From Desulfobacterales bacterium (GTDB lineage: Bacteria; Desulfobacterota; Desulfobacteria; Desulfobacterales; JAFDCJ01), in the NCBI GenBank assembly GCA_020345785.1, contig CP070771.1, positions 555,697 through 568,671 of the forward strand: DNA of 12,975 nt, read 5' to 3'. The notes below the pieces were generated by a model, which was not told the DNA's origin, made no database searches, and was given only the letters and a program-made list of their open reading frames with translations. Shown here one piece after another: positions 1 to 12,975 of the stretch (its first letter is position 1; the number at the start of each line of letters is the position of its first letter). A program made the translations under genes and the position numbers.

Positions 1-387
1 CGCATAAAAATATCCTATGGCTCCGGTGGCATCCTGCAGTTCAAGATTGGTTACACCGGGTTGAACCACAGCGTAACGGCTTTCGGGATAGATTCCCAGA
101 ATTCGGTTCAGACGGGAAAGACAGATGATCAATCCTTGGTCGGCCACAATGGTGCCGCCCGACAGGTTGGTTCCAAATCCGCGCGGCACAAAGGCAACTC
201 CTGCGCGGCGGGCAGCGCGCACGACCCGGGCAACTTCATTGCCGTTGGCGGGAAAAACCACTACGCCGGGTTTACCCCTGGCCAAAGAGGCATCATAGGA
301 GTACAGTTCCGAGATGGTTCGAGACATCGAAACATGCGCTTTGCCGACAATGCTTTCCATCTCGCGAATAAGAGTATCCGATATCAT
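1..387 (-). CDS. glcD: GlcD-type FAD-linked oxidase (glycolate/D-lactate oxidase family), N-terminal part
   Basis: This is the first 129 codons of a gene that continues past the left edge. The translated N-terminus reads through a VVVFPANGNEVARVVRAARR stretch (residues about 42-61) and then PRGFGTNLSGG (about residues 68-78), the nucleotide-binding signature of the FAD_binding_4 domain in GlcD and D-lactate dehydrogenases. Enzymes of this family oxidise 2-hydroxy acids to 2-oxo acids and usually work with a partner FAD subunit (GlcE) and an iron-sulfur subunit (GlcF), which would lie outside the window. I chose ATG at 387 because a weak AGTGAG lies just upstream; an in-frame GTG at 396 is an alternative. 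The gene follows a CoA ester lyase and CoA ligase cluster with the same orientation, which favours glycolate or a related hydroxy acid. The substrate cannot be read from this fragment. Confidence 0.85.
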   Translation of the reverse strand, partial: MISDTLIREMESIVGKAHVSMSRTISELYSYDASLARGKPGVVVFPANGNEVARVVRAARRAGVAFVPRGFGTNLSGGTIVADQGLIICLSRLNRILGIYPESRYAVVQPGVTNLELQDATGAIGYFYA

Positions 388-407
388 TTCGCTCACTTTG
401 TTCTATT

Positions 408-415
408 ATTGTCTG
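408..415 (-). promoter_or_regulatory. CAGACAAT motif upstream of glcD, shared with the gntR promoter
   Basis: The minus strand carries CAGACAAT about 20 bases before the glcD start. The same 8-mer occurs on the plus strand at 10270-10277, in the leader of the FadR-type regulator. It is a candidate half-site for that regulator, but an 8-mer match is weak and could be chance. Confidence 0.2.
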
Positions 416-496
416 TTCAGGTTGATAATAAGACCAAAATTTACTATGCATAAAAAAAGTCCACCCCCACCCTCCGGCTTTTGCCAACATCATAGC

Positions 497-524
497 GGCA
501 CAAGGCACAAGGCGCAGGGTGCAA
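497..524. repeat. Four tandem 7-base units (GGCACAA type)
   Basis: The units read GGCACAA, GGCACAA, GGCGCAG and GGTGCAA in direct succession. They lie in non-coding DNA and look like one of the short, decaying intergenic repeats seen elsewhere in this window. Confidence 0.55.
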
Positions 525-897
525 GGAAAATAAGCCTGCAAAACCGGCAACGTGCTGCTTAATCGAGTTCAGGGCTTCACCCATCTGGCAGCTAATAAGG
601 CACCTGTCGCCAGGTTTCTTTTTTGCCCTTCTATTTCAATTTCAGATGCCCGGCCGGGATCATCGTCCTTTTGAAAATGGATCGCCGTCTTCACCTCGGC
701 ATCGGCGCACGCGAGCGCACGCATTTCATCCGATGACCTGAAAATCATTTTCCGAAACAAGCGAAAAGTCTTCCCGGGGTGTCTTGCTGAGCAGACATAT
801 AATTATGCCATCCTGCCTTTCTGCAGTTGTTGATAATAAAACAACGATTTCGGAAGCCGTGCGCGGCTGCCGTTAATCGGCCGGATGGGCCTTGCAG

Positions 898-1110
898 CTA
901 TTCCATCACAATCAGAACAGCATCTGCTTCCACTGCATCACCTTTTTTGCAGTTCACCTCTTTTACCGTACCGGATTCCTCGGCGACTATGGGCAACTCC
1001 ATTTTCATGGCCTCGATGATGACAACTTCTTCACCTTCTTGGACACTGTCACCTACATTTACCTTAACATCAATAACCTTTCCACCCATCGGCGATTTAA
1101 CTTCACTCAC
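898..1110 (-). CDS. Biotin carboxyl carrier protein (biotinyl domain), stand-alone
   Basis: This is a 70-residue biotin/lipoyl-attachment domain with nothing else fused. The biotinylation motif EAMKMEL is present, with the modified lysine at residue 36 of the protein as called, and the usual SPMGGKV start and SGTV turn flank it. It would carry the carboxyl group between the OadA carboxyltransferase and the membrane decarboxylase encoded just upstream; OadA here has no biotinyl domain of its own. I chose GTG at 1110. The upstream in-frame ATG at 1128 is poorly placed, because an AGGAGG sits inside its first codons and lies 8 bases before the GTG. The gene is separated from the oadG-like gene by about 500 bases of repeat-rich DNA, so it may have its own promoter. 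Confidence 0.9.
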   Translation of the reverse strand: MSEVKSPMGGKVIDVKVNVGDSVQEGEEVVIIEAMKMELPIVAEESGTVKEVNCKKGDAVEADAVLIVME

Positions 1111-1252
1111 GGCTGATTCCTCCTTCATCTTTATTAGTATTTTACAGCTAAGATACTACGCTTTTTCCGAGTCTGCACTCGGAAAAAGTTGCCCCTGGGG
1201 GGCAGTAAATTTATCGCAAAGTCACCTAAATGAGGGGTCGGGGTGTTTTTCT

Positions 1253-1328
1253 CGTCATGCCCGCGGAGGCGGGCATCCAGTCCACTCGGTACCGAATTTT
1301 CCGGATTCCTGCCTTCGCAGAAATGACG
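1253..1328. repeat. 76-base REP/MITE-like element with imperfect inverted ends
   Basis: The left end begins CGTCATGCCCGC and contains a 7-bp stem (1258-1264 with 1269-1275, loop GGAG). The right end carries TTCCTGCCTTCGCAG and finishes ATGACG, an imperfect inverted copy of the left end. Elements of this CGTCATNCCCGC...ATGACG shape are common dispersed repeats in many bacterial genomes. No open reading frame is inside, so it would need a transposase in trans if it is mobile. Confidence 0.65.
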
Positions 1329-1389
1329 GTCGATAGCGAATAAACTCCCCGACTGCTCAATTAAATAGATTTTCCGCCGCAGGCGGATC

Positions 1390-1541
1390 AGGTTTCAGGT
1401 GTCAGCTGATGGCCGCTCAAGTTTACCCGCCTTTGGAGGGTGCTCAGTTTGATCGAAATGGAGTCATGCCTGATACCTTAAACCTTATGCCCTAAACCAA
1501 GTTCCTTGCACCAGAAATCTGACACCTGACACCTGAAACCT
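1390..1541. repeat. Pair of perfect 16-base inverted repeats 120 bases apart
   Basis: AGGTTTCAGGTGTCAG at 1390-1405 is the exact reverse complement of CTGACACCTGAAACCT at 1526-1541. The right copy is preceded by an extra GACAC unit, so the core looks like a short iterated CTGACAC motif. It could be the ends of a small non-autonomous element or two insertions of one repeat. Confidence 0.6.
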
Positions 1542-1566
1542 TAAAAAAATCAAAGCAATCGGCAAC

Positions 1567-1586
1567 ATCGACAACAAATTGTCGAT
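1567..1586. repeat. 8-bp stem hairpin downstream of the oadG-like gene
   Basis: ATCGACAA (1567-1574) pairs with TTGTCGAT (1579-1586) over a 4-base loop. On the minus strand a run of seven T follows only about 18 bases later (1543-1549), so it is a weak candidate for an intrinsic terminator of the oad genes. Confidence 0.35.
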
Positions 1587-1627
1587 ACGGCGCTACTAAG
1601 CGCTTAGGCTTAGCCAAATTTAACCTT

Positions 1628-2107
1628 TCAGGCTTTTGCCGCCGTCTCTTTCTCTTCTAATTTCTTGACGGATCGCGAAATGATCGCCCCTGAGATGGAC
1701 ATGCCGATCAGAAGAAAAAGAAGCACGACAAAGACGCCAATATACCGCAATATAAGCGTTCCGATGATCCAGGTCCAATTGTCCTTTACAATGACGACCA
1801 CGGCGCCGTTCGCATCATCCTTGGAAATCGTGATGGAATGCCACTTCAGGCCTCCATCGTCCTCGATATAGGTGGCATCTTTCCAATTGCGGTATTTGAT
1901 ATCATTCAGTTGCGCTAGGGCCTCTTTATAGAACCGGAGAACCTCGTCATGGGTCTTCTTGGAGTTCAGCTCCAATCTTTTCTTGGTTTTACTGATCGGC
2001 TCTCCACCCGGAATGACCGGCGCACCTAAAAAGTCATCTGCCCGGGACCATCCGGATACAGATAAAAGCCAACATACAATGAGCGTTAACAATATGATCT
2101 TTTTCAT
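1628..2107 (-). CDS. OadG-position membrane protein with signal peptide and periplasmic domain
   Basis: The 159-residue product has an N-terminal signal peptide (residues 1-23, SRA/DDF cleavage likely), a soluble region of about 85 residues that should face the periplasm, one hydrophobic segment (about 113-143) and a short charged tail rich in Lys and Glu. The hydrophobic segment and its position directly after oadB fit the gamma subunit of the sodium-pumping decarboxylase, which is a small single-span protein. Typical OadG proteins lack the large N-terminal domain and have a longer cytoplasmic tail, so the identification rests mainly on context. The soluble part contains a DEVLRFYKEAL helix as seen in small periplasmic domains of unknown function. 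It lies 45 bases after oadB with an AAGG ribosome site, so it is very likely co-transcribed. I am sure of the gene and less sure of the subunit role. Confidence 0.7.
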   Translation of the reverse strand: MKKIILLTLIVCWLLSVSGWSRADDFLGAPVIPGGEPISKTKKRLELNSKKTHDEVLRFYKEALAQLNDIKYRNWKDATYIEDDGGLKWHSITISKDDANGAVVVIVKDNWTWIIGTLILRYIGVFVVLLFLLIGMSISGAIISRSVKKLEEKETAAKA

Positions 2108-2152
2108 TTTTTATGCCTTGTTGCTTTAGCGGCTGAACTTTTACAATGGCTG

Positions 2153-3298
2153 TTAGTCAAACATGGCAATAAACATGCCGGCCGCGGCAGCCGATCCAAT
2201 AACACCGGCCAGATTGGGCCCCATGGCATGCATGAGCAAATGGTTTGTCTTATCGTATTTCAAACCCTGAAGTTGGGATACCCGGGCTGCCATGGGAACG
2301 GCGGAAACTCCGGCCGAACCGATCAAGGGGTTGATCTTTTCTTTTAGGAAGAGATTCATGATCTTCACCGTGGCAATACCGCCGACGGTGCAGACGGCAA
2401 AGTCAATCAAGCCCAGACCGAAAATGAAAAGCGGTTTCCAGCTGAGGAAATTGTCGGCATGCATGGTCGCGCCGACCGAAACCCCCAGAAATATGGTCAC
2501 AATGTTCATTAATGCCCCCTGAGCCGTCTCGGTGAGCCGGCCGACAACCCCGCTTTCCTTCATCAGGTTGCCCAGCATGAACATGCCCATCAACGGCATG
2601 ACGGAGGGCACCAGGAGCGCAATAATGCCGGCCGTCACGAGGGGAAACAGGATTTTTTCCTGTCGGGAGACGGGCCGCAGCTGACGCATTCGGATCTTTC
2701 GTTCCTGGGGAGAAGTCATCCACTTCATGATGGCGGGCTGGATCAGAGGCACCATGGCCATGTAGGAATACGCCGCCAGCGCATTCGGGCCGAGCAACTG
2801 GGGCGCCAGGTGCTGGGTCAGATAGATGGTCGTGGGGCCGTCAGCACCGCCGATGATGCCCACCGATGCTGCTTCCTTGAGGGTAAAGCCGGCCAGCACT
2901 GTGCCTGTAAAGGTAATGAAAACACCTAATTGGGCGCCGGCGCCGACGATCAGCGTTTTGGGATTGGCAATCAGCGGACCAAAATCGGTCATGGCACCCA
3001 GTCCCAGGAAAATGACACAGGGAATCACCTCCCACTCCAGCCCGTAGTGATAAAAGATCTGCAGCAAATAGGCGTGGCCTTCGCGGGAGTGTCCCATCAA
3101 GGGCACAAGGGGAAAGTTGACGAGAAAAATCCCAAATCCAATGGGCAGCAGCAACAGGGGTTCATATTTTTTGGCGATGGCCAAATAGATAAAAAACGAG
3201 GCCACCGCCCACATGATGATGATTTTCCACTGGAAGTTGAATACTCCGGTCGTATAGAGGATGCCATTTAGCATATCCAATATTTCATTCGCGGTCAT
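2153..3298 (-). CDS. oadB: Sodium-translocating decarboxylase beta subunit (OadB/GcdB/MmdB family)
   Basis: This 381-residue integral membrane protein would decarboxylate carboxybiotin and move Na+ outward. The family signature GIIGGADGPTTIYLTQHL lies at residues 148-165; its Asp153 corresponds to the essential Asp in the GGADGP motif of known OadB proteins. AAYSYMAMVPLIQP (175-188) and MHAMGPNLAGVIGSA (356-370) are the other conserved membrane segments thought to line the ion path. It is about 50 residues shorter than Klebsiella OadB but in the normal range for the family. The ATG at 3298 has AAGG about 8 bases upstream, and the gap to oadA is only 18 bases, so the two are one transcription unit. 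The family also serves glutaconyl-CoA and methylmalonyl-CoA decarboxylases; the OadA partner next door favours oxaloacetate. Confidence 0.93.
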   Translation of the reverse strand: MTANEILDMLNGILYTTGVFNFQWKIIIMWAVASFFIYLAIAKKYEPLLLLPIGFGIFLVNFPLVPLMGHSREGHAYLLQIFYHYGLEWEVIPCVIFLGLGAMTDFGPLIANPKTLIVGAGAQLGVFITFTGTVLAGFTLKEAASVGIIGGADGPTTIYLTQHLAPQLLGPNALAAYSYMAMVPLIQPAIMKWMTSPQERKIRMRQLRPVSRQEKILFPLVTAGIIALLVPSVMPLMGMFMLGNLMKESGVVGRLTETAQGALMNIVTIFLGVSVGATMHADNFLSWKPLFIFGLGLIDFAVCTVGGIATVKIMNLFLKEKINPLIGSAGVSAVPMAARVSQLQGLKYDKTNHLLMHAMGPNLAGVIGSAAAAGMFIAMFD

Positions 3299-3316
3299 TG
3301 CGATACCTTATCCTTC

Positions 3317-4810
3317 TTACATGGTCATGCATACCTGCTCGATGGCGGCTGCCATGGCCTCATCTTCTTTACGGATATCTTCCAGGGTTTTGGGTTTAAC
3401 CGCCTGCGGCTTTTCTTCCAGACCGTATTTCCACTTAAGGAACTGCTCGCCGGTTGAAGGATAAAGCGCATAGATAAGCAGGTCAAAATCGTCTTTGGCC
3501 AAATCGCTGATCTTCTTCTTGTCTGCTTCCAGCTCGGGTTCCAAGTAATCGGCCGCCCGGCCCGTGACCGGTGTCTCGCCTCGTTTATAGCCTTTGAGCA
3601 CCTTTTTGCGCACTTCGGGATCCACCGGCGTGGGTGTTTTGCCATAAAGACCGTACACCAGATCCTTGACCTCGTTGGTCACCATTTTATACTTGCCGAA
3701 AAGCACATTGAGCACCGCCTGAACGCCTACAATTTGGCTGGTCGGCGTGACCAGCGGCGGGGTTCCCAGCTCTGTGCGCGTCACCGCCACTTCTCTGAAT
3801 ACCTCCGGCAGCCGATCAAGGGCTTTGGCCTCTTTGAGTTGGTTCACCAGATTGGAGAGCATTCCGCCGGGAACCTGATGGGCCAACACCCCGGTGTCGA
3901 TGACCGACATTTTGTGCTTAGCCAAATAATCCCGATACTTGGGAGCGATGGTTTCGATGAAATCTCCCAATTCGAGCAGCAGACCGAGGTCAAAACCAGG
4001 ATCGCGCTTTGTTCCGTATAAGGTCGCCACAATCGGCTCGATGGCAGGCTGTGAGGTCCTCAACGCAAAGGGCGCCAGGCAGGTGTCGACAATGTCCACG
4101 CCGGCTTTAATAGCCTCCAGATAAATCATGGAAGCCATGCCGCTGGTGTAATGGGTATGCAAATGGATCGGAATCGTGATCTCTTTTTTCAATTCCGTAA
4201 TAATCTTGGCGATATCAAAGGGGGACATGATGCCAGCCATATCCTTTAAGCAAAGCGAATCGGCTCCCATCGCCTGTATCTCTTTGGCCTTGGTCTTGTA
4301 GTACTCAAGGTTGAACACCTCTCCGCCCATTCGTCTCTCGGTCAGAGAATAACAGATGGTGCCCTGGAAATGCTTCCCATTGGCCTTGATCCGCTCCACC
4401 ACGGTCTCAAAATTTCGAAAATCATTGAGCGCATCAAATACCCTAAAAACGTCTATTCCGACCTCGCATGCTTTATCCACGAACAACCTGGCCACATCAT
4501 CCGCATAGTTGCGATACCCCACCAGATTTTGCCCTCTTAAAAGCATGGAGAACGGGGTTTTTTTGATATGGTTCTTCAAGGTGCGCACGCGCTCAAAGGG
4601 GTCCTCCGCCAAAAAACGATGCATCGAATCAAAGGTAGCTCCGCCCCAAACCTCCATGGCCCAGAATCCGACAGAATCCATCTTTTCCGCAATGGGAAGC
4701 ATATCCTCGGTCCTCATCCTTGTTGCCAACAAGGACTGATGACCATCTCTAAATGTGTTGTCTTGGATCTTAATGGGATTTTGGGGTCCCTCTTCCAGAA
4801 AATCATTCAT
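3317..4810 (-). CDS. oadA: Oxaloacetate decarboxylase alpha / pyruvate carboxylase B-type carboxyltransferase
   Basis: The 497-residue protein transfers a carboxyl group between oxaloacetate and biotin. Residues 14-300 form the carboxyltransferase barrel, starting with DNTFRDGHQSLLATRMRTED. By comparison with the 5S transcarboxylase and OadA, the metal and carbamate residues are Asp22, Lys189 in LCLKDMAG, and His218 and His220 in IHLHTHYTSG. The conserved carboxylase domain follows, with QVPGGMLSNLVNQLKE and TPPLVTPTSQIVG. The C-terminus ends without a biotinyl domain, which is encoded separately at 898-1110. A GGAGGTG lies just before ATG 4810. Context with oadB and an oadG-like gene argues for the sodium-pumping decarboxylase rather than a pyruvate carboxylase, though sequence alone does not separate the two, and the complex might run either way. 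Confidence 0.9.
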   Translation of the reverse strand: MNDFLEEGPQNPIKIQDNTFRDGHQSLLATRMRTEDMLPIAEKMDSVGFWAMEVWGGATFDSMHRFLAEDPFERVRTLKNHIKKTPFSMLLRGQNLVGYRNYADDVARLFVDKACEVGIDVFRVFDALNDFRNFETVVERIKANGKHFQGTICYSLTERRMGGEVFNLEYYKTKAKEIQAMGADSLCLKDMAGIMSPFDIAKIITELKKEITIPIHLHTHYTSGMASMIYLEAIKAGVDIVDTCLAPFALRTSQPAIEPIVATLYGTKRDPGFDLGLLLELGDFIETIAPKYRDYLAKHKMSVIDTGVLAHQVPGGMLSNLVNQLKEAKALDRLPEVFREVAVTRTELGTPPLVTPTSQIVGVQAVLNVLFGKYKMVTNEVKDLVYGLYGKTPTPVDPEVRKKVLKGYKRGETPVTGRAADYLEPELEADKKKISDLAKDDFDLLIYALYPSTGEQFLKWKYGLEEKPQAVKPKTLEDIRKEDEAMAAAIEQVCMTM

Positions 4811-4874
4811 GGTGCACCTCCATTATACTTAGGGTATATAGTTTCATATTGCCCGGAGAAATTGATTGATGCGT

Positions 4875-5162
4875 CTACTTAACTGAATTGCGTTTGCTCT
4901 GTATGGTGGCCTCTTTATCTCTTCGGTCATCCACCTTCAGATCAATGGTAATCCTCCGGGCGCCTTCATCAAGATGAGCCTGATGTACTTTTTTTACCAG
5001 GAGGAACAAAGCGTCCAAATCGGGAACTTCAATACAGGTGGACATCCCACCGATCTCATAATGATAACCGGATTCCTTGATGACCTCAATGCCCTTCTTG
5101 ACCAACCGGCTTAAGCTGGTGCCATCACCTATGGGAAATACCGATAGTTGTGCGAGGATCAT
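4875..5162 (-). CDS. MTH1187-family thiamine-binding protein (DUF77)
   Basis: The 95-residue product begins MILAQLSVFPIGDGTSLSRL and contains YEIGGMSTCIE and RRITIDLKVDDRRDK, the three conserved stretches of the MTH1187/YqgV family. These small ferredoxin-fold proteins bind thiamine or related molecules and form tetramers, but their cellular task is not settled. It is 64 bases upstream of oadA, with GGAGA before its ATG, so it may be part of the oad unit. The reason for keeping it here is unclear; it could buffer thiamine for a pyruvate-using TPP enzyme downstream in the pathway, which is inference. Confidence 0.85.
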   Translation of the reverse strand: MILAQLSVFPIGDGTSLSRLVKKGIEVIKESGYHYEIGGMSTCIEVPDLDALFLLVKKVHQAHLDEGARRITIDLKVDDRRDKEATIQSKRNSVK

Positions 5163-5198
5163 AGATATTCTCCAATAATCATGCCTTTTAAAAATAAA

Positions 5199-5231
5199 TT
5201 GTAATCATTCTGGAATTTAGAATTCTTACAA
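5199..5231. repeat. AT-rich inverted repeat, 13-base arms, before the thiamine-binding protein gene
   Basis: Arms 5199-5211 and 5219-5231 pair at 11 of 13 positions over a 7-base loop. On the minus strand the stem is followed by TTTATTTTT, so it could act as a weak terminator after the formyltransferase gene or as an operator for the downstream genes. Confidence 0.4.
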
Positions 5232-5243
5232 TCAAATTCAAAA

Positions 5244-5270
5244 TGCCTAAAGTGCCTAAAATGCCTAAAA
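5244..5270. repeat. Three tandem 9-base units (TGCCTAAAA type)
   Basis: TGCCTAAAG, TGCCTAAAA and TGCCTAAAA lie head to tail. Two related units occur at 11314-11331 in another intergenic gap, so this is a dispersed tandem motif of the genome. Confidence 0.6.
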
Positions 5271-5300
5271 TTAAGGAATCCTATCTAATTTAAAACTGAT

Positions 5301-5350
5301 GGAGCGAAGCGACTTCAATAAATATTCAATTTTCAATAGTCAATAGTCAT
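5301..5350. repeat. Dispersed 50-base intergenic repeat, copy 1
   Basis: This stretch matches 8725-8774 at 43 of 50 positions in the same orientation. It starts GGAGCGAAGCGAC and continues as an ATTCAATTTTCAATA-rich tract. It ends 16 bases from the stop codon of the formyltransferase gene, with a CCGGC/GCCGG mini-hairpin (5353-5365) in between. Confidence 0.7.
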
Positions 5351-5366
5351 TTCCGGCTTCGCCGGT

Positions 5367-6278
5367 TTACGTACCAAACCGCATGCCCACCTTCAATTCT
5401 ATTTCATCAGCCAATTTATCGGCATCCAGTTTAGCACCCTTTTCTGCCTTCATCTTGCCGATTTTCAGCGCCCCGCCGTTGAGAGCGACGACCACCTCTC
5501 CTCTACCGATTCTGATTACCTCCCCAGGTACACTTTCATGGACTGCCTCGATCAACTGCCCTTGGTAAAATTTAACATTCTGGCCTGCGAAGGTCGAATG
5601 TGCTCCCGGCTGAGGGTCACACCCCCGGATCAGATTATAGACCTCCCGGGCCGGTTTTGACCAATCAATCCCGGCATGTCGGTCGTCGCAGGGCGGCTCA
5701 TACGTCGCCAGTGCCTCATCCTGGGAGATTTTGGGGGCCTTGCCGTTTTTAATGAGATCTACTGCTTCGACAATGGCATCGATACCCATCGGAAACAGCT
5801 TATTGAAGTAAAGCGAACCCGTGGTGTCATCCGGTGCAATTTCTACTTCCTCCTGCAGAAGAATTGGACCGGTATCGATACCTTTGTCTACCCACAGGAT
5901 TGTCAGCCCCGTGCGGGTGTCGCCTTGGATAATGGCCCAATTGATTCCACTGGCTCCCCGATGTTTCGGCAGCAGTGAAGGGTGGTAACAGATGGTACCG
6001 ATGGAAGGAATTTCTAAAAGACTGTCCGGTATAATGTCGGTTACGAAGGCAAGAATAACCAGATTCGGCTTTAAGTTTAGGAATGCCTGCCGCACCTCAT
6101 CATCCTTCATGTGGTTGGGCTGAAAAACGGTCTTGCCTGAATTTTCGGCCAGGCTTTTCATGGCCTCACCCCGTTTGTCTTGCGGGCAGAAGACCCCGAC
6201 GATGTCCTCGCCTTTTTGGATAAGGGCATCCAAGGTCTTTTCCCCGAAAGGACCCTGACCAACCAGAATTATTCTCAT
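5367..6278 (-). CDS. Formyltransferase-family protein resembling the hydrolase domain of 10-formyl-THF dehydrogenase
   Basis: The 303-residue protein has the N-terminal formyltransferase fold (starts MRIILVGQGPFGEKTLDAL) and a C-terminal FMT-C-like beta domain (about 205-300). The motif CYHPSLLPKHRGASGINW (97-114) gives His99, and GIDTGPILLQ gives Asp135. Their spacing of 36 matches the His106/Asp142 pair of the hydrolase domain of 10-formyltetrahydrofolate dehydrogenase, and HPSLLP-HRGAS is shared with it. The Asn two residues before the His in methionyl-tRNA formyltransferase is Cys97 here, so it is unlikely to be the housekeeping Fmt. It probably releases formate from, or moves a formyl group of, 10-formyl-THF. 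GGAGG lies just before ATG 6278. It starts after the terminator that closes the CoA-ligase cluster, so it probably begins a new unit with the thiamine-binding and oad genes. Confidence 0.75.
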   Translation of the reverse strand: MRIILVGQGPFGEKTLDALIQKGEDIVGVFCPQDKRGEAMKSLAENSGKTVFQPNHMKDDEVRQAFLNLKPNLVILAFVTDIIPDSLLEIPSIGTICYHPSLLPKHRGASGINWAIIQGDTRTGLTILWVDKGIDTGPILLQEEVEIAPDDTTGSLYFNKLFPMGIDAIVEAVDLIKNGKAPKISQDEALATYEPPCDDRHAGIDWSKPAREVYNLIRGCDPQPGAHSTFAGQNVKFYQGQLIEAVHESVPGEVIRIGRGEVVVALNGGALKIGKMKAEKGAKLDADKLADEIELKVGMRFGT

Positions 6279-6360
6279 TATCCCTCCTACTTCCTCTCCA
6301 AACCGCTAAGATCACCAAAACAGTCATTAATCCGGTTTTCTATTACTGCTAGGCGATAGC

Positions 6361-6396
6361 AAAAGAGGCACAAAGAATTTCCAATCTTTATGCCTC
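6361..6396 (-). terminator. Intrinsic terminator after the CoA ester lyase gene
   Basis: On the minus strand GAGGCATAAAGA pairs with TCTTTGTGCCTC around an 8-base loop, a 12-bp stem with one G-U wobble, and TTTT follows directly. It lies about 85 bases after the stop codon of the CoA ester lyase and should end the sucC-like to lyase transcript. Confidence 0.8.
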
Positions 6397-6479
6397 CTGA
6401 TCAAGGACTTATGATAGCCACCGCGTTTCCCATGGTGCAGTCCATCAAAACCCTGCCAGGTTTGCAGACTGCCCCTGAA

Positions 6480-7376
6480 TTACTTTGTTTTGGACTCCGC
6501 AGCTTTGATTTCTTCCATGGTTCGCAGGATCTGCAGCGCATTTTCGTAGACCGGGGTGTCCACCATTTTACCCTTGTAGGAAACCGCGGCGGACCCCTTG
6601 GCAATACCCTCTTCTTCAAAGACCTTCTTGACGCCCTCGGCCCACTCGACATCTGCGGCAGACGGGGTGTAGATCTCATGGGAAGGCCCAATCTGGCTCG
6701 GGTGGATCAGCATCCTGCCTTCATAGCCCATCTGACGGCCTTCCCGGGTACTCTTTTTGAATGCTTCCACGTCGCTGATGTTCACAAAGGGACAATCGAT
6801 AGCCACACATCCGGCAGCGCGGGCTGCAACAGCCGTGTGAAACCTGGCATACAACTGTTCCTGCCCTTCGGAAGTGAGGGTTACGCGCATATCCTTGGTA
6901 AAATCCACGGCCCCGAAAATAAGAGAGTTGACCCGCGGACTGGCACAGGCGGCAGGATAGGCGTTCATCACACCTTTGGCTGTTTCAATCAGCAATTGGA
7001 TGGCCACACTGCCCACCTTCATGCCTCTCCTCTGCTCCAGTTCTTCCAGCTTCCAGTCCAGACGTTTGACATTATCAGCATCACCGCATTTTGCCAGACA
7101 CACGCCGTCAAGGCCGGGATGCACAATAGCTTCCAGATCATCGTTGGTCATCTGGGTTTCCCAGTTATTGACGCGAACATAAAGGGAAGGGGCAAGCTGT
7201 TTTTCCCGGTTGGCTTTCAGATACGCTTGTATCATTACCCGGCCTTTGGGCTTTTCCGCCGGCGGTACGGAGTCCTCCAAATCCAGGGTCAGGATATCAC
7301 ACAAAATTTCCGGGGCCTTGCCGACCATCTTTTCATTATTGCTGGGTGTGTAAAACACCGATCTCATAACTGGCAT
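6480..7376 (-). CDS. CoA ester lyase of the HpcH/HpaI, CitE and malyl-CoA lyase family
   Basis: This 298-residue TIM-barrel enzyme belongs to the Mg2+-dependent lyases that split 3-hydroxyacyl-CoAs such as (S)-malyl-CoA, citramalyl-CoA or citryl-CoA into acetyl-CoA and a 2-oxo acid, reversibly. Visible motifs are LDLEDSV (31-37), YVRVNN with the CoA/substrate Arg68, LLIETAKGV with Glu131 and FGAVDFT with Asp158 (the Mg2+ ligands), then GYEGRMLIHPSQI near 218-229. Length is normal. GGAGGAGG lies 8 bases before ATG 7376. It follows the CoA-ligase alpha subunit by 71 bases and its transcript ends at a good terminator, so it works with that ligase. With a GlcD oxidase in the same region, malyl-CoA lyase (glyoxylate + acetyl-CoA) is the favoured role; citramalyl-CoA lyase is an alternative. 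Confidence 0.88.
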   Translation of the reverse strand: MPVMRSVFYTPSNNEKMVGKAPEILCDILTLDLEDSVPPAEKPKGRVMIQAYLKANREKQLAPSLYVRVNNWETQMTNDDLEAIVHPGLDGVCLAKCGDADNVKRLDWKLEELEQRRGMKVGSVAIQLLIETAKGVMNAYPAACASPRVNSLIFGAVDFTKDMRVTLTSEGQEQLYARFHTAVAARAAGCVAIDCPFVNISDVEAFKKSTREGRQMGYEGRMLIHPSQIGPSHEIYTPSAADVEWAEGVKKVFEEEGIAKGSAAVSYKGKMVDTPVYENALQILRTMEEIKAAESKTK

Positions 7377-7447
7377 GATAGGATCCTCCTCCTTCTAATT
7401 GGAAAGTTGGAATTCTATTTTCCCGAATAGCTGTTTAAATATCGACA

Positions 7448-8344
7448 CTACAAATTAATGAGTTCTTTAATTTTGGGGGCAATTTCCTCGGGACTGTCAA
7501 CGACATGGGCCTTGGCCTCGGTCAAGGCCTTGATTTTGCCCTGGGCGGTACCCCGACCACGCTCCACAATACTGCTGGCATGGGAAAATCGCATTCCCTC
7601 CGGGGCCCACGCACCAGCTATATAGACAACCAGCGGCTTTGTAAACTCACCTTTGGCAACGGTCTCGGCCGCTTCTTCTTCCAAGGTTCCGCCGATTTCA
7701 CCAAATATAGCAACTGCTTTGGTCTGTTCATCTTTTTCGAACAGCTTAAGCACATCGGACATGGTGAGACCCAAAACCGGCTCTGTCCCGATATGCATGG
7801 CGGTGCTGATACCAAGGCCGGCCACTTTCAGGGCCCAAGGCACTGTTCCTGATTGACCGCCGCTGCGGGATATGACACCGATTGGTCCCGGCTCGAAAAG
7901 CATGCTGGCCCAATCGACGCTGCCGCCCAGCCAGCCCATGGCGGCTTTGCCGGGACTGATAATTCCAAGGCTACCAGGGCCCAGTATTTTGGCGCCATTA
8001 TTCATCGCATAGTGGACCATGGCAATCACATCATGAACCGGGATACGCTCCACCGGCGAGACCACGAATTTGATTCCCGCGTCGATGGCCTCATAAACAG
8101 CACTTTTTAGCGCCGGGCCGGGAATAAATGTCACCGTGGCATCCACCATACCCTCATTATTAATGGCTTGCTGAACGGTGTCGTATACCGGCAGGCCATG
8201 AACCTCTCCCCCGCCGCGCCCCGGGGTCACGCCGGCGACGACCTTGGTTCCGTACTCTTTCATAAACTCGGTCCGCAGGGATCCTTCCCTGCCTGTCATT
8301 CCCTGCACAATGACTCTGGTATTTTCGTCTAACAGTATTGACAT
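7448..8344 (-). CDS. Acid-CoA ligase alpha subunit, SucD-like, divergent
   Basis: The 298-residue product has the CoA-binding Rossmann domain (1-130, GVTPGRGGGEVHGLPVYDTV) and the ligase domain of succinyl-CoA synthetase alpha. FGEIGGTLEEEAAE and YIAGAWAPEGMRFSHASS are conserved, and His255 sits where the phosphorylated histidine of SucD lies. Several motifs differ from true SucD: GPNCPG is GPGSLG, GTLTYE is GGQSGTV, and the GHAGA box is SHASS. The enzyme should make or break an acyl-CoA with ATP and a phospho-His intermediate. Given the neighbouring CoA ester lyase, malate-CoA ligase is a likely role but is not proven; other hydroxy acids are possible. The start at 8344 has a GGGGGATGAA ribosome site, and the ferredoxin-like gene ends 12 bases before it. 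Confidence 0.85.
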   Translation of the reverse strand: MSILLDENTRVIVQGMTGREGSLRTEFMKEYGTKVVAGVTPGRGGGEVHGLPVYDTVQQAINNEGMVDATVTFIPGPALKSAVYEAIDAGIKFVVSPVERIPVHDVIAMVHYAMNNGAKILGPGSLGIISPGKAAMGWLGGSVDWASMLFEPGPIGVISRSGGQSGTVPWALKVAGLGISTAMHIGTEPVLGLTMSDVLKLFEKDEQTKAVAIFGEIGGTLEEEAAETVAKGEFTKPLVVYIAGAWAPEGMRFSHASSIVERGRGTAQGKIKALTEAKAHVVDSPEEIAPKIKELINL

Positions 8345-8356
8345 TTCATCCCCCTG

Positions 8357-8641
8357 CTATTGTGTTCCGTGCTTTTTCCTGTAGTCTGCCAGCCCCTCAA
8401 TCGGGACCTCGATGGTGATGGCCGAATTGCCCCTGAACCAGCATTCGTATTCACAGGCAAGACATTCAGTGCCTTTGCGCGCCAGTTCCTCGGCAGATCC
8501 TTCAACCGCCGGCTTGCCGCCTTTCAGGATCAGGATGCCGCGACTGTAGGTCTTACAGGCCTCTACACAGGCATGGGTTTTACAGCCTTCACATTTTTCG
8601 TCATCAATGATGACCTTGATCGTTCTCTCGTTAAACTCCAT
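8357..8641 (-). CDS. Small ferredoxin-like iron-sulfur protein, seven Cys
   Basis: The 94-residue protein has Cys at 17, 20, 25 and 29 (CEGCKTHACVEAC) and at 60, 63 and 67 (CLACEYEC). A fourth cysteine of the second motif is missing, so it could bind one [4Fe-4S] cluster and a second of [3Fe-4S] type or with a non-Cys ligand. The spacing CxxCx4CxxxC is unusual. The overall layout is nearer to FixX-type than to clostridial ferredoxins. I chose ATG 8641 because AGAAGGGGG lies upstream; the frame can be extended to 8743 but the added part is encoded by the intergenic repeat. The gene lies between the two subunits of the CoA ligase and is close to the alpha gene, so it was probably retained for a joint function, perhaps electron transfer linked to the pathway or a structural subunit. 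Confidence 0.8.
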   Translation of the reverse strand: MEFNERTIKVIIDDEKCEGCKTHACVEACKTYSRGILILKGGKPAVEGSAEELARKGTECLACEYECWFRGNSAITIEVPIEGLADYRKKHGTQ

Positions 8642-8724
8642 AAGACCCCCTTCTTGTGATTTGATATTTTCAATTGAATAATGATTATTTGAGGTTCGCC
8701 TGTGGCCGCTCATTAAAAAATGGC

Positions 8725-8774
8725 GGAGCGCAGCGACATCCACAAATATTCAATTTTCAATATTCAATATTCAA
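8725..8774. repeat. Dispersed 50-base intergenic repeat, copy 2
   Basis: This matches 5301-5350 at 43 of 50 positions. It covers the stop codon of the SucC-like gene and most of the gap to the ferredoxin-like gene, so the end of that protein may have been set by the insertion. Confidence 0.7.
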
Positions 8775-10021
8775 TCCTTTTCTTTCCGGTATTCATCGAC
8801 CAGGGCTCTAACCCTGCCGCCGATGAATTTGGCATCGTAAACATGCTCCCGATCATAGATTTCAATCCTGGCATTGAGATCCGCCAAACCCTCTTTTAGA
8901 ATCTGCTGGGATTCGGCTTCCTTGTTGCCGCAAAGCAGAAGAACCACTGGAAAACCCGGGCGTTTGGGAAGTTCTTCCCTCAAGGCCTTTACAATGCCGT
9001 GGGCATGATGCCACTGTTCCTGATTCGCCATCATAAATCCGGCCAAAAAATAGGCCTCAATGCCCGGGATCGACATAATAAGCTTCACGACCCGGTAAAC
9101 CTTGGAGGCCGTCGGATTGCCGCTGGTGTCGGCGTAATCGGCAACCTTCAAATCCACCTTATTAAGCGCATCCATGCCGAGCATGGCCGCGCCGCCGCCG
9201 ATACCGTGGTAGCCGACATAACCGCCTTTGGCCACCTCCTGCGGATCGGCCATCTGGGCCACATAGCTGGTGCCGCGAAAATCGCTCTCTTCAAACGACC
9301 AGGCGATGAGATCAAACTCGGTGGGCTCTTTGAGAAACTCACGGCCGATTTTGATCCCCAGATCGGGGTGTCTGAAAAGTGCCTGGTCATCGATCGCCAT
9401 ACGGCAGTCGGCTGCCAGAACTTTGCCGTCGCCGGTCAGCACGAGCGGGTTAATTTCCAATGTCCGGCAATCCATCTGCTGGAAAGCCTTGAAAAGTTTG
9501 AAAACGACATCGGCAATCGGTCTGAGGGTCTTGCCCTTTACTCCCATTGAAGAGACCAGATTCAAGGTATCATAAGGCATGATTCCCTTGATGACATCTA
9601 CATTCATGACAGCGATTTTATCCTGGGGCACTGATTCGATGTCCACACCTCCCTCAGGGCTGAACATCAACACCGGCCCTCTGACCTCCTGGGCGGAGTT
9701 GATAATCACACCGGCATAAAACTCCTGAGCGATATCCAGCTTTTCCTCAACGAGAACCTGTTTAACTTCAAGCCCTTTGACCTGCATGCCCAGAATCGCG
9801 TCGGCTGCCGCTTCGGCCTCAGCAGGTGTGTCGGCAAATTTTACCGCTCCGGATTTTCCCCTGCCGCCGGCCCACACTTGCGCTTTAACCACGACGGGCT
9901 TTGCCAACTTTTCTGCCGCCTGCCTGGCCTCTTGCGGGGATTTCACCACCATCCCTTCAGGGATCGGGATACCCGCTTTCTTAAATATTTCCTTTCCCTG
10001 ATACTCGAAAAATTTTGCCAT
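8771..10021 (-). CDS. Acid-CoA ligase beta subunit, SucC-like, with altered C-terminal motif
   Basis: The 416-residue protein has an ATP-grasp domain like succinyl-CoA synthetase beta: EYQGKEIFKKAGIPIPEG, VVVKAQVWAGGRGKSGAVK (43-61), SPEGGVDIE, and LEINPLVLTGDGKVLAADCR with Asn191 and Asp205 as the Mg2+ ligands expected from E. coli SucC. DDQALFRHPDL is also conserved. The C-terminal domain departs from SucC: the NGAGLAMATMD segment is IGGGAAMLGMD, LDVGGGA is ADTSGNPT, and the NIFGGI-RCD loop is AGFMMANQEQWHHAHG. That loop helps shape the acid-binding site in succinyl-CoA synthetases, so the substrate is probably not succinate. GGAGG lies just before ATG 10021. It is the first gene of the cluster and is divergent from the GntR regulator, which likely controls it. 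Confidence 0.85.
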   Translation of the reverse strand: MAKFFEYQGKEIFKKAGIPIPEGMVVKSPQEARQAAEKLAKPVVVKAQVWAGGRGKSGAVKFADTPAEAEAAADAILGMQVKGLEVKQVLVEEKLDIAQEFYAGVIINSAQEVRGPVLMFSPEGGVDIESVPQDKIAVMNVDVIKGIMPYDTLNLVSSMGVKGKTLRPIADVVFKLFKAFQQMDCRTLEINPLVLTGDGKVLAADCRMAIDDQALFRHPDLGIKIGREFLKEPTEFDLIAWSFEESDFRGTSYVAQMADPQEVAKGGYVGYHGIGGGAAMLGMDALNKVDLKVADYADTSGNPTASKVYRVVKLIMSIPGIEAYFLAGFMMANQEQWHHAHGIVKALREELPKRPGFPVVLLLCGNKEAESQQILKEGLADLNARIEIYDREHVYDAKFIGGRVRALVDEYRKEKD

Positions 10022-10300: not shown

Positions 10301-11080
10301 ATGGTCAGACCAAGCTTTCAGCCCATCAAACAGGAAAAAATCTCCGCTAAAATCGCTGGACAAATAAAATCTCTCATCGCAAAGGGTGAATTGAAGCCCG
10401 GAGATGTCTTACCCCCGGAAAGAGAACTCGTCAAGGTCTTTAAAGTAAGTCGGGCCTCACTGCGGGAAGCTCTGAAATCACTGACCGGAATGGGTTTTTT
10501 AGAGATCACTCATACGCATCGAACCATTGTAAAATCTCTGGCCGCCGGCCGGATCACCGAACCGCTTGACCATCTCATCAGGGAGGACATCCATACCGTC
10601 TTTGAGCTGATCGAAGTCAGGAAGGCGATCGAGACCTGGAATGCGTATTATGCAGCAGTAAGGGCTGACGATGAGGATGTCGCGCGACTCGAGAGCAGCA
10701 TCGGATCAATGCGGCAAAAAATTGATCAGCACAGCAGTGCAGTGGAAGACGATGCCAATTTTCATATTGCCGTCTCACAGGCTGCACACAACAAAATACA
10801 GACCCATCTGATGTTCTCCATATATGACCTGCTCAAAGAATCCATTGCAAACTACTTCGACAACTTTAAACTAAATTACATACTTGATCAGCACTATCGG
10901 GTGGTCGAGGCCATAAAAAAGAACGATCCGGTTTTGGCCAGCAGAAGAATGCGTGAACACCTTGACTATGTCGAATCCGTGGTAAAAGAACATGCCGTTG
11001 CCGATCATAGCCAGCCCGACTGGATAAGTTCAGCACATGCGACAGTTGGAAGAAACTCGGAAAACACGCTGCCCGGATAG
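10301..11080 (+). CDS. FadR-family GntR transcriptional regulator
   Basis: The 259-residue product has a winged helix-turn-helix at about 11-80 (GELKPGDVLPPERELVKVF, then VSRASLREALKSLTGMGFLE) and an FCD ligand domain from about 95 to 225. Likely metal ligands of the FCD domain are Asp151 and His155 in DANFHIAV, His198 in QHYRVVEAI and His220 in REHLDY, the pattern of FCD proteins that bind a carboxylic acid through a metal. Family members such as GlcC and LldR sense glycolate or lactate. The gene is divergent from the CoA-ligase cluster with 279 bases between them, the usual place for a local regulator. The ligand is inferred to be a 2-hydroxy or 2-oxo acid of the pathway. Confidence 0.9.
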   Translation: MVRPSFQPIKQEKISAKIAGQIKSLIAKGELKPGDVLPPERELVKVFKVSRASLREALKSLTGMGFLEITHTHRTIVKSLAAGRITEPLDHLIREDIHTVFELIEVRKAIETWNAYYAAVRADDEDVARLESSIGSMRQKIDQHSSAVEDDANFHIAVSQAAHNKIQTHLMFSIYDLLKESIANYFDNFKLNYILDQHYRVVEAIKKNDPVLASRRMREHLDYVESVVKEHAVADHSQPDWISSAHATVGRNSENTLPG

Positions 11081-11582: not shown

Positions 11583-12041
11583 TCATACACCTTTAAACTT
11601 CATTTCCCGGTTGATTAACCTCATCTTCTTCAGCACCTGCTGGAGCTCGTCGTCAGTAATACGGCAAAACAGGTATGCTTTTTCACGCTCCAGGCGAAAC
11701 CTGATAAAACTGTACGGTATAAGGGCCAACCGCGGACCTTCCACCAGAGAAATAGCGTCGGCCCTGACGCTGAGCACCCTCCTGAAACTGGTTAATTCAA
11801 TCGTTCCCTTATCATCAATGTAAATCCTGTATGAAATTCCCAGTGAAAAAAACCAGGTGTACCCCAGCACGAATGCGATCATGAGCAGCTGAAACAGCGG
11901 CCACCCGGCGCTGAGAGTCTTTGATCCGATCATCACAATGCATACAACCGTCCACACCAGCAAAAGCACATAAAAAAGCCCCACAAAAAAAATTGGGGCC
12001 TGGTATAGGTAGTCTTTTTTAGAGATCCTGTCTTTTTTCAT
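11583..12041 (-). CDS. Membrane protein with two TM helices and a possible PH-like domain
   Basis: The 152-residue product has two hydrophobic helices (about 15-38 and 47-69) and then an alternating beta-type region (YRIYIDDKGTIELTSF, VLSVRADAISLVEG, IRFRLEREKAYLF) closed by a helix (about 129-147). This order of two TM helices, beta barrel and C-terminal helix is that of bacterial PH-domain membrane proteins, but the similarity is judged by eye only. The function is unknown. It follows the TRAP permease by 85 bases and probably shares its transcript. The ribosome site before ATG 12041 is weak, so translation may depend on coupling or on the permease mRNA. Confidence 0.65.
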   Translation of the reverse strand: MKKDRISKKDYLYQAPIFFVGLFYVLLLVWTVVCIVMIGSKTLSAGWPLFQLLMIAFVLGYTWFFSLGISYRIYIDDKGTIELTSFRRVLSVRADAISLVEGPRLALIPYSFIRFRLEREKAYLFCRITDDELQQVLKKMRLINREMKFKGV

Positions 12042-12126: not shown

Positions 12127-12975
12127 CTAGTACAGGATGTTGGGCAACCATAGTATGATTTTGGGGAAGTACATCACCAGAGCCACCCCGACAACCTGCA
12201 GGCCGATGAAGGGGGCCGAAGACTTCCAGATATCCGTCGTCGAAACCTCGGGTGGTGCCACACCCTTCAAATAGAAGAGCGCATATCCGAAAGGCGGCGA
12301 AAGAAAGGAGATTTGCAAATTGGTGGCAAACAGCACGCCAAACCACACCGGATCAAAGCCCAGCTGTCGGATAATGGGGCCGAAAATGGGGACGCACAGC
12401 ATGATGATGCCGACCCAGTCAATGAAACATCCCAGGAAAACCAGAATCAGCTGCATGACAATGATGATGCCCCATTTTCCCAGTCCGGAGCCCAGGAGCA
12501 TCTGGGTAACAAATTCGCCGCCGCCCACCATGACGTATAAACCGACAAAGATATTGGCGCCAAAAATGGTCCACATAACCATGGCGGAAGATTTCAGCGT
12601 ATTTTCAGCGGCCTGAACGACGCCTTTCCATTTCAGCTTGCCCTGCAAAGCGGTAAGTATAATGGCACCGGCGGCACCCACGCCGGCCGCCTCGGTGGGC
12701 GCCGCGATACCGGTAAATATGGTCCCCAGCACCAGGAAAATAAGAATGGCAGGCGCGACGATCCGCACCAGCAGTCCCAGTCTGTCTTTAAGGGGCAAGC
12801 GTTCCTCCGGCGGGACCGGCGGGCCCAAGGTGGGATTAATATAACATCGAATCGTAACATATGCGATAAACAAGGCCGACAGCATAATCCCGGGCAGGAT
12901 GGCCCCGGCGTAAAGCCGGCCGATGGAGCTGTTATCCACCAGACCGTAAACGATCAGCATGACGCTGGGCGGAAT
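12127..12975 (-). CDS. dctM: TRAP transporter large permease (DctM family), C-terminal part
   Basis: The last 282 residues of a DctM-type permease are present; the gene runs off the right edge. The ATG at 12960 is internal, because the reading frame continues upstream as IPPSV, giving the IPPSVMLIVYG motif of the family. Other signatures are AAPTEAAGVGA, FLGCFIDWVGIIMLCVPIFGP and the segment SFLSPPFGYALFYLKGVAPP, which is typical of large permeases grouped with mannitol/chloroaromatic or 2-oxo acid TRAP systems. The permease uses an ion gradient, usually Na+, to import a carboxylic acid delivered by a binding protein. The small permease and binding protein should lie to the right. A hydroxy- or oxo-acid substrate would fit the metabolic genes in the window. 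Confidence 0.92.
   Translation of the reverse strand: MPPSVMLIVYGLVDNSSIGRLYAGAILPGIMLSALFIAYVTIRCYINPTLGPPVPPEERLPLKDRLGLLVRIVAPAILIFLVLGTIFTGIAAPTEAAGVGAAGAIILTALQGKLKWKGVVQAAENTLKSSAMVMWTIFGANIFVGLYVMVGGGEFVTQMLLGSGLGKWGIIIVMQLILVFLGCFIDWVGIIMLCVPIFGPIIRQLGFDPVWFGVLFATNLQISFLSPPFGYALFYLKGVAPPEVSTTDIWKSSAPFIGLQVVGVALVMYFPKIILWLPNILY

What the first reader, a model, noticed from the sequence alone, without database searches (positions are those of the whole stretch)
1..10021. Possible malyl-CoA-type glycolate/glyoxylate oxidation pathway coupled to a sodium pump
A GlcD-type oxidase, CoA ester lyase, SucCD-like ligase and a Na+-pumping oxaloacetate decarboxylase share one strand across 10 kb. 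Glyoxylate plus acetyl-CoA to malyl-CoA, ligase-driven ATP formation to malate, then oxaloacetate decarboxylation with Na+ export would form an energy-saving cycle. A malyl-CoA route for glycolate oxidation is known in syntrophic bacteria; adding an Oad pump in the same locus would be an uncommon combination.
Basis: partly seen in the sequence, partly recalled or inferred. Interest (0 to 1): 0.7.

Follow-up and report, generated by a model that had tools for sequence, protein, structure and literature searches.

The report
Anaerobic glycolate pathway with sodium pump
This genome fragment, which resembles Desulfobacterota, carries a probable set of genes for burning glycolate without oxygen through malyl-CoA, using an unusual ligase with an extra iron-sulfur protein and, here, a sodium-pumping decarboxylase.

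Summary
In detail: SucC-like, SucD-like, CitE/HpcH-like, OadA, OadB and the start of a GlcD-type oxidase lie on the minus strand. The block SucC-[FeS]-SucD-CitE is widely conserved: in 80 loci fetched by the Fe-S protein, SucC precedes it in 75 of 75 with room and SucD follows in 79 of 79 readable; GlcD-type genes are near in 49, PFOR in 12, malic enzyme in 10. It occurs in Desulfofustis glycolicus and three Moorella species; papers name D. glycolicus and other Moorella as malyl-CoA-pathway users. Best reading: glyoxylate + acetyl-CoA to malyl-CoA to malate + ATP. The ligase is not MtkAB: own clade, own motifs, Fe-S partner. Of 81 loci, only the window has this Oad inside the operon; five of 80 have a different OadA type nearby. 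Sodium coupling is plausible, not shown. Known pathway, new variant.

The parts
8771..10021 (-). SucC-like (beta, ATP-grasp) subunit of an ADP-forming CoA ligase; proposed malyl-CoA synthetase subunit
   Evidence: PF08442; own clade apart from SucC and MtkA; ANQEQWHHAH in place of the SucC/MtkA loop
8357..8641 (-). 94-aa iron-sulfur protein with 7 conserved cysteines; proposed third ligase subunit
   Evidence: no Pfam or NCBIfam hit for the ORF 8357-8743; 280 homologues at E 0.001, 120 listed; 7 Cys kept; between SucC and SucD wherever readable; AlphaFold mean pLDDT 72
7448..8344 (-). SucD-like (alpha, CoA-binding, phospho-His) ligase subunit
   Evidence: PF02629, PF00549; SHASSI aligned to the GHAGA His region of E. 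coli SucD
6480..7376 (-). CitE/HpcH-type CoA ester lyase; proposed malyl-CoA lyase
   Evidence: PF03328; 30-31% to Mcl of Aminobacter and Paracoccus; the block's lyase is the only match to an Mcl query in 5 of 6 genomes
5367..6278 (-). Protein like the N-terminal 10-formyl-THF hydrolase domain of ALDH1L1
   Evidence: best PDB matches are 10-formyl-THF dehydrogenases, 208 bits; Cys at the Asn position of formyltransferases
4875..5162 (-). MTH1187-type thiamine-binding protein
   Evidence: PF01910 and TIGR00106 above cut-off
3317..4810 (-). OadA-type carboxyltransferase without biotin domain
   Evidence: PF00682, PF02436; RDG, KDM and HxH motifs kept
2153..3298 (-). OadB, membrane Na+-translocating decarboxylase subunit
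   Evidence: PF03977 and TIGR01109 above cut-off; GGADGP and MGPN motifs
1628..2107 (-). Putative OadG-like small membrane protein with N-terminal signal-like segment
   Evidence: position after OadB; a 54% homologue follows a 90% OadB in L152; no Pfam hit
898..1128 (-). Biotin carboxyl carrier protein (EAMKME)
   Evidence: NCBIfam biotin-carrier models matched, below their cut-offs; 81% homologue in L002 in the same operon slot
572..772 (-). Remnant of the 3' part of a methyltransferase gene that is open in L002
   Evidence: tblastn 68.7% over 67 aa, E 8e-25
1..396 (-). N-terminus of a GlcD-type FAD oxidase (runs off the window)
   Evidence: PF01565; the GlcD-GlcE-like fusion in L009 passes TIGR00387
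10301..11080 (+). GntR/FCD-family regulator, divergent
   Evidence: PF00392, PF07729
12127..12975 (-). TRAP transporter large permease DctM (cut by the window end)
   Evidence: PF06808; DctM-like genes in 23 of 80 related loci

Best explanation
A catabolic gene cluster for anaerobic glycolate/glyoxylate oxidation. A GlcD(EF)-type oxidase makes glyoxylate. The CitE-type lyase condenses it with acetyl-CoA to malyl-CoA. A three-gene ADP-forming ligase (SucC-like, Fe-S protein, SucD-like) releases malate and makes ATP. Malate is oxidised to oxaloacetate by an MDH encoded elsewhere. OadA + BCCP + OadB (+ OadG-like) decarboxylate oxaloacetate to pyruvate with Na+ export, where some other lineages carry malic enzyme. 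PFOR regenerates acetyl-CoA. Shown: gene content, gene order, conservation, motifs. Inferred: substrates, direction, the Fe-S protein being a ligase subunit, Na+ coupling. My weights: malyl-CoA/glyoxylate use about 0.72; Fe-S protein as ligase subunit about 0.7; Oad working in this pathway about 0.55. On checking I lowered the first weight and the overall odds slightly, because the GlcF-like and most GlcD-like proteins scanned miss the curated glycolate-oxidase cut-offs.
For: Block conserved around the Fe-S protein: SucC 75 of 75 with room, SucD 79 of 79, CitE in 74 loci. GlcD-type 49, GlcF-like 39, PFOR 12, malic enzyme 10 of 80. D. glycolicus locus: divergent TRAP genes, then SucC-FeS-SucD-CitE-ThiB-methyltransferase-GlcDE-GlcF-PFOR. 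Three Moorella loci: block followed by malic enzyme. L010 has the block with MDH, PFOR, GlcD and a biotin-domain OadA type plus OadB. None of 6 carrier genomes has a malate synthase, and in 5 of 6 the block's lyase is the only match to an Mcl query. OadA/OadB motifs and BCCP present. L002 keeps the BCCP between ThiB and the methyltransferase-GlcD pair. Literature passages: D. glycolicus and Moorella named as malyl-CoA users (PMC6313629, PMC8092247); Desulfofustis glycolicus called a glycolate-oxidizing sulfate reducer (PMC4262008).
Against: No activity or expression data. The lyase falls below the curated cut-offs of the citE, RipC and halophile Mcl models alike, so sequence does not fix its substrate. 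Of three GlcD-type proteins scanned, one passes the glcD cut-off (571.9 vs 567.9) and two do not; the three GlcF-like proteins score below the GlcF cut-off and best against other models. A GlcDEF-like flavoprotein in a sulfate reducer is proposed to do other chemistry (PMC13416013, abstract and passages). D. glycolicus also has a glyoxylate carboligase above cut-off. This Oad arrangement was seen in no other of 81 loci; 499 nt with two terminator-like hairpins part OadG from BCCP. An OadB at 90% in G006 lies by methylmalonyl-CoA mutase, and one at 65% in G004 seems to. The OadA relative in G004 has no OadB in the 380 nt that remain on its contig. MDH is not in the window; GlcD is cut off.
Confidence: 0.6

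Rival explanations
1. Citrate catabolism: the ligase is a citryl-CoA synthetase, the lyase a citryl-CoA lyase, and Oad handles the oxaloacetate, like a citrate-fermentation operon with a ligase in place of CitDF.
For: TIGR01588 citE is the best NCBIfam model for the lyase (188 bits); citryl-CoA synthetase 6hxq is the second PDB match of the SucC-like protein; Oad commonly serves citrate fermentation (recalled).
Against: Far below the citE cut-off of 443.4; GlcD-type genes near the block in 49 of 80 loci and malic enzyme in 10 do not fit citrate; no CitD or CitF model was hit by the 13 window proteins scanned; present in D. glycolicus.
Confidence: 0.1
2. The block handles another hydroxy acid (citramalate, itaconate-derived or other) and GlcD is a general 2-hydroxyacid dehydrogenase.
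For: The mitochondrial citrate-lyase-beta-like protein (CLYBL) and RipC are near matches; a paralogous block in G004 sits beside two MmgE/PrpD-like genes and an aldehyde-oxidoreductase-like gene (my reading of the sequences), so the module can serve other acids; GlcF-like and most GlcD-like proteins scanned are below the glycolate-oxidase cut-offs.
Against: Links to malic enzyme, MDH and PFOR and occurrence in D. glycolicus; the paralogue is only 49/34/55/34% identical to the window's proteins.
Confidence: 0.19
3. OadABG + BCCP is a separate unit (propionate or anaplerotic metabolism, or a transcarboxylase part) that only neighbours the glycolate genes in this genome.
For: Unique to this window among 81 loci; OadB at 90% and OadG-like at 54% in G006 lie by methylmalonyl-CoA mutase; OadA matches the transcarboxylase 5S model too, 451 bits, below its cut-off; 499-nt gap with repeats.
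Against: OadA starts 64 nt after ThiB on the same strand; BCCP is kept in the same operon slot in L002; three of 6 genomes show no malic enzyme; L010, L013, L015, L019 and L024 carry another OadA type near the block.
Confidence: 0.4
4. The small Fe-S protein is an electron carrier for GlcD or PFOR, not a ligase part.
For: Ferredoxin-like cysteine pattern and a weak, non-significant fold match to 2[4Fe-4S] ferredoxin 1fdn.
Against: Between the ligase genes wherever readable (75/75, 79/79), also in loci where no GlcD or PFOR was found in the fetched stretch and in the paralogous block.
Confidence: 0.25

Closest known systems
Malyl-CoA pathway of glycolate/glyoxylate oxidation in Syntrophobotulus glycolicus, Desulfofustis glycolicus and Moorella
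   Same: Same inferred reactions; D. glycolicus and three Moorella species carry the same block
   Different: Described from physiology and enzyme evidence in the passages I saw; the window has Oad where some relatives have malic enzyme
MtkAB + Mcl of the serine cycle
   Same: SucCD-fold ligase and HpcH/CitE-fold lyase for malyl-CoA
   Different: Mtk groups with SucCD, not with this block; in three records Mtk genes abut with no Fe-S gene between; lyase 30-31% identical
Succinyl-CoA synthetase SucCD
   Same: ATP-grasp plus CoA-binding subunits, phospho-His region
   Different: Loops changed; SucCD-like genes that group with E. coli SucCD are also in the genomes of L002 and L009
Na+-translocating oxaloacetate decarboxylase
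   Same: OadA carboxyltransferase, OadB pump, biotin carrier
   Different: Biotin domain is a separate gene; gamma-like ORF unrecognised by Pfam
ALDH1L1 N-terminal 10-formyl-THF hydrolase domain
   Same: Sequence along most of the protein, His and Asp kept
   Different: Stand-alone; role in this operon unknown

Membership tests
Anaerobic malyl-CoA glycolate pathway | GlcD-type oxidase genes linked to lyase and ligase genes | tested here: met
   GlcD-type in 49 and GlcF-like in 39 of 80 loci; in the window only the GlcD start is seen
Anaerobic malyl-CoA glycolate pathway | The oxidase is a glycolate oxidase by curated models | tested here: inconclusive
   glcD cut-off passed by 1 of 3 GlcD-type proteins scanned (L009, 571.9 vs 567.9); GlcE-like and GlcF-like parts below cut-off
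Anaerobic malyl-CoA glycolate pathway | Malate to pyruvate to acetyl-CoA enzymes linked | tested here: met
   Malic enzyme 10, PFOR 12, MDH 1 of 80 loci; in the window Oad only
Anaerobic malyl-CoA glycolate pathway | Malyl-CoA lyase and ADP-forming malyl-CoA ligase activities | not testable with these tools
   needs enzyme assay
MtkAB malate-CoA ligase | Score above NF010647 cut-off (604) | tested here: not met
   173.8 bits
MtkAB malate-CoA ligase | Groups with MtkA/MtkB in a tree | tested here: not met
   Block separate, 100/100
SucCD succinate-CoA ligase | Score above NF001913 (370) and NF004230 (336) | tested here: not met
   263.1 and 283.6 bits
ADP-forming CoA ligase superfamily | ATP-grasp, CoA-binding and CoA-ligase domains, active-site His region | tested here: met
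   Pfam; SHASSI; pattern SHA[SG][SAT]I in 75 of 80 SucD-like ORFs scanned
Citrate lyase CitDEF | CitE above TIGR01588 cut-off, CitD and CitF present | tested here: not met
   188.4 vs 443.4; no CitD or CitF hit among 13 window proteins scanned
Na+-translocating oxaloacetate decarboxylase | OadB subunit | tested here: met
   TIGR01109 486.4 vs 190.6
Na+-translocating oxaloacetate decarboxylase | OadA with 2-oxoacid carboxyltransferase motifs, and a biotin carrier | tested here: met
   Motifs, BCCP; TIGR01108 593.6 is below its cut-off 756.5, a model that includes the biotin domain
Na+-translocating oxaloacetate decarboxylase | OadG (PF04277) | tested here: inconclusive
   No Pfam hit at E 0.001 for 1628-2107; position and membrane-anchor look only
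Na+-translocating oxaloacetate decarboxylase | Na+ transport on decarboxylation | not testable with these tools
   needs vesicle assay
10-formyl-THF hydrolase (ALDH1L1 N-domain) | Closer to it than to methionyl-tRNA formyltransferase; His/Asp kept, Asn absent | tested here: met
   208.2 vs 158.5 bits; Cys in place of Asn

The most novel reading that the evidence does not exclude
A third class of ADP-forming acyl-CoA ligase, made of SucC-like, SucD-like and an obligatory seven-cysteine iron-sulfur subunit, paired with a CitE-type lyase, is the malyl-CoA synthetase of anaerobes across several phyla; the iron-sulfur cluster may tie ATP formation to cell redox state, and in this lineage the pathway is joined to a sodium-pumping oxaloacetate decarboxylase so that each glyoxylate yields ATP and a sodium gradient.
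Probability: 0.4. Interest if true: 0.75.

Novelty: new variant of a known kind. Interest (0 to 1): 0.55.

Why it matters
The malyl-CoA route of anaerobic glyoxylate use was proposed from physiology and enzyme evidence in the 1990s (so PMC8092247, passage; Friedrich and Schink 1995 is the reference cited). In the listings and passages I saw no paper names this gene block or an Fe-S subunit; PMC8092247 does imply that S. glycolicus has 'canonical' malyl-CoA lyase genes, without naming them in the passages seen. The block gives testable candidates in cultured strains such as D. glycolicus DSM 9705 and Moorella, a possible genomic marker for anaerobic glycolate turnover, and an unexplained Fe-S partner of a CoA ligase.

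Tried and rejected
MtkAB/Mcl membership: rejected by curated cut-offs, gene order and tree. Citrate operon: weighed and held unlikely. Fe-S/SucD fusion, suspected, was an artefact of my ORF picker. The first ORF picker chose antisense ORFs; replaced. Whole-genome OadB presence as support for oxaloacetate decarboxylation: weakened, since OadB in G006 lies by methylmalonyl-CoA mutase (Pfam) and in G004 by a protein that looks like it (not scanned), and in L153 a carboxyl-transferase-domain gene (PF01039) is near. The OadA-type genes in L010, L013, L019 and L024 (about 30% identical) lack the LLRGQN motif, so their substrate is open; L015's is cut by the contig end and was not aligned. Fold search of the Fe-S model: no hit at E 0.001. 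OadA search in 291 genomes of one order: 275 with matches, the listed top ones mostly in open frames over 600 aa (capped list); the two top places opened (L129, L130) had no OadB beside OadA. Promoter/terminator scan near chance: 18 vs 15.0 +/- 4.2 and 20 vs 14.7 +/- 3.4. No Rfam hit at gathering score. Malic enzyme (10 loci) and OadA (5 loci) never share a locus, but the numbers are too small for a test. I did not check whether S. glycolicus or M. thermoacetica carries the block.
Full report
Observation. In order of transcription: SucC-like (8771-10021), a 94-aa Fe-S protein (8357-8641), SucD-like (7448-8344), CitE/HpcH-like lyase (6480-7376), a formyltransferase-fold protein (5367-6278), an MTH1187 thiamine-binding protein (4875-5162), OadA (3317-4810), OadB (2153-3298), a small membrane ORF (1628-2107), a biotin carrier (898-1128), a methyltransferase remnant (572-772) and the first 132 residues of a GlcD-type oxidase (1-396). 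A GntR/FCD regulator is divergent (10301-11080) and a TRAP DctM gene lies upstream (12127-12975). No genome is held for the window.

Comparison. The Fe-S protein has no Pfam or NCBIfam match but 280 homologues at E 0.001, of which 120 were listed. A profile of the window protein and 33 of them (A1) was used for one scan of the species genomes: 115 relatives, of which the best 80 loci were kept. In one search the Fe-S ORF was found in 79 of 80; in L065 masked bases run it into SucD in one frame. SucC lies just upstream in 75 of 75 loci with more than 300 nt of room, SucD just downstream in 79 of 79, and CitE follows in 74; it was not found in L006, L022, L033 and L063, which have room. GlcD-type genes lie in the fetched stretch, on either strand, in 49 of 80; of 52 loci with at least 6 kb downstream, 36 have one on the same strand. 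GlcF-like 39, TRAP DctM 23, DctP 27, GntR 29, formyltransferase-fold 29, ThiB 14, PFOR 12, malic enzyme 10, MDH 1, OadA-type 5, BCCP 1 of 80. Many loci are cut by contig ends, so these are lower bounds. All 80 Fe-S sequences keep seven cysteines (76 by pattern, four read).

Named carriers. L009 is Desulfofustis glycolicus DSM 9705; its order is TRAP genes (divergent), SucC-FeS-SucD-CitE, ThiB, methyltransferase, a GlcD-GlcE-like fusion, GlcF-like, PFOR. The fusion scores 571.9 against the glcD cut-off of 567.9, its second half 220.8 against the GlcE cut-off of 284, and the GlcF-like protein 145 against 333, with an LdhH model higher but also below cut-off. Two other GlcD-type proteins scanned (L034, L079) score 539.7 and 483.2, below the glcD cut-off. 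L058, L059 and L070 are Moorella sulfitireducens, M. mulderi and M. stamsii, with malic enzyme right after CitE. L021 is Desulfospira joergensenii. L010, an uncultured deltaproteobacterium, has the block with MDH, a 1173-aa PFOR, GlcD and a divergent OadA-type/OadB pair. Papers (passages found by term): PMC6313629 lists D. glycolicus, S. glycolicus, Moorella sp. HUC22-1, M. thermoacetica and a Lachnospiraceae strain as users of the malyl-CoA pathway; PMC8092247 calls it proposed for S. glycolicus and used by Moorella sp. HUC22-1; PMC3156405 describes S. glycolicus growth; PMC4262008 calls D. [quoted passage not shown] PMC10992200 says M. thermoacetica uses glyoxylate and glycolate; PMC13416013 reports a GlcDEF-like flavoprotein thought to act on benzene, a warning against reading every such set as glycolate oxidase.

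Whole genomes. In six carrier genomes (those of L002, L006, L009, L010, L021, L059) no malate synthase was found (0 of 6). A canonical Mcl query finds only the block's lyase in 5 of 6; the sixth, G004, has two matches, one in a paralogous block and one, on contig C307, that I did not look at. Glyoxylate carboligase above cut-off: only D. glycolicus, 1 of 6, so that organism has a second possible glyoxylate route. Malic enzyme: 3 of 6. OadB: 5 of 6, but in G006 it lies by methylmalonyl-CoA mutase and in G004 it seems to, so this does not by itself mean oxaloacetate decarboxylation. Completeness of these genomes was not given.

The ligase. SucC- and SucD-like proteins of the block form clades with full support apart from E. 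coli SucCD, the SucCD-like genes of the genomes of L009 and L002 (L096, L097) and MtkAB of Paracoccus, Aminobacter and Ruegeria (30-36% and 38-43% identity). The tree warns of long branches for the Azospirillum sequence and the paralogue. The loop NIFGGIVRCD of SucC (NIFAGINRCD in MtkA) aligns to FMMANQEQWHHAH here; the motif was found in 70 of 71 block SucC-like ORFs (those over 350 aa and 52% identity). In the Paracoccus, Aminobacter and Ruegeria records MtkA and MtkB abut with no gene between. A paralogous block, 49/34/55/34% identical, lies in G004 beside ABC transporter, aldehyde-oxidoreductase-like and MmgE/PrpD-like genes (these names are my reading of the sequences, not a family search). 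There too an Fe-S protein sits between the ligase genes, with no GlcD in the 19 kb read. So the Fe-S protein follows the ligase, not the oxidase. Its model is of medium confidence (pLDDT 72) and finds no significant fold match.

The pump. OadA keeps RDG, KDM and HxH motifs, and OadB keeps GGADGP, GVSAVPMAARV and MGPN (their functional meaning is recalled). OadA lacks a biotin domain; the separate carrier at 898-1128 can supply it. L002, the window's sister in the trees (an Olavius-associated bacterium), has the same carrier between ThiB and the methyltransferase but no OadABG there. The window keeps a remnant of that methyltransferase between carrier and GlcD. So the two loci share one operon plan, with OadABG gained here or lost there. 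Five of 80 loci carry another OadA-type gene near the block, in four with OadB seen. Those OadA are about 30% identical, and in the four aligned LTRS replaces LLRG, so their substrate is open. A 499-nt stretch with repeats and two terminator-like hairpins parts OadG from the carrier.

The formyltransferase-fold protein matches the hydrolase domain of 10-formyl-THF dehydrogenase best (208 bits against 158 for methionyl-tRNA formyltransferase). Cysteine stands where formyltransferases have asparagine in 25 of 30 aligned sequences; 4 have Asn and 1 has Gln. Its role is unknown; a link to C1 units is a guess.

Verdict. Best reading: a malyl-CoA glycolate/glyoxylate pathway with an uncharacterised three-component ligase, in which a Na+-exporting oxaloacetate decarboxylase takes the place of malic enzyme. 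The first part is well supported by context, the second is plausible but rests on this one locus.

Noticed in passing
   Followed up: partly
window 572-772, minus strand: Truncated remnant of a methyltransferase gene that is open in L002.
   Followed up: yes
window 5367-6278: Stand-alone protein like the 10-formyl-THF hydrolase domain of ALDH1L1; formyltransferase-fold homologues in 29 of 80 loci, five of which (L007, L009, L011, L021, L031) have Asn or Gln instead of Cys; role unknown.
   Followed up: partly
L010:5453-7300, L013:15213-17099, L019:15023-16909, L024:9141-11012: OadA-like proteins with LTRS in place of LLRG beside OadB and the malyl-CoA block; perhaps a sodium-pumping decarboxylase for another acid.
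   Followed up: partly
L152:5932-9787: OadB (90%), OadG-like (54%) and BCCP (74%) relatives of the window's genes next to methylmalonyl-CoA mutase.
   Followed up: partly
window 11583-12041: Small membrane protein without Pfam match next to TRAP DctM; 9 loci in its cluster (window included).
   Followed up: no
L053: A contig binned as a Nitrososphaeria archaeon carries SucC-FeS-SucD-CitE; transfer or binning error not checked.
   Followed up: no
window 1253-1541: Inverted repeats in the gap between OadG and the biotin carrier.
   Followed up: no
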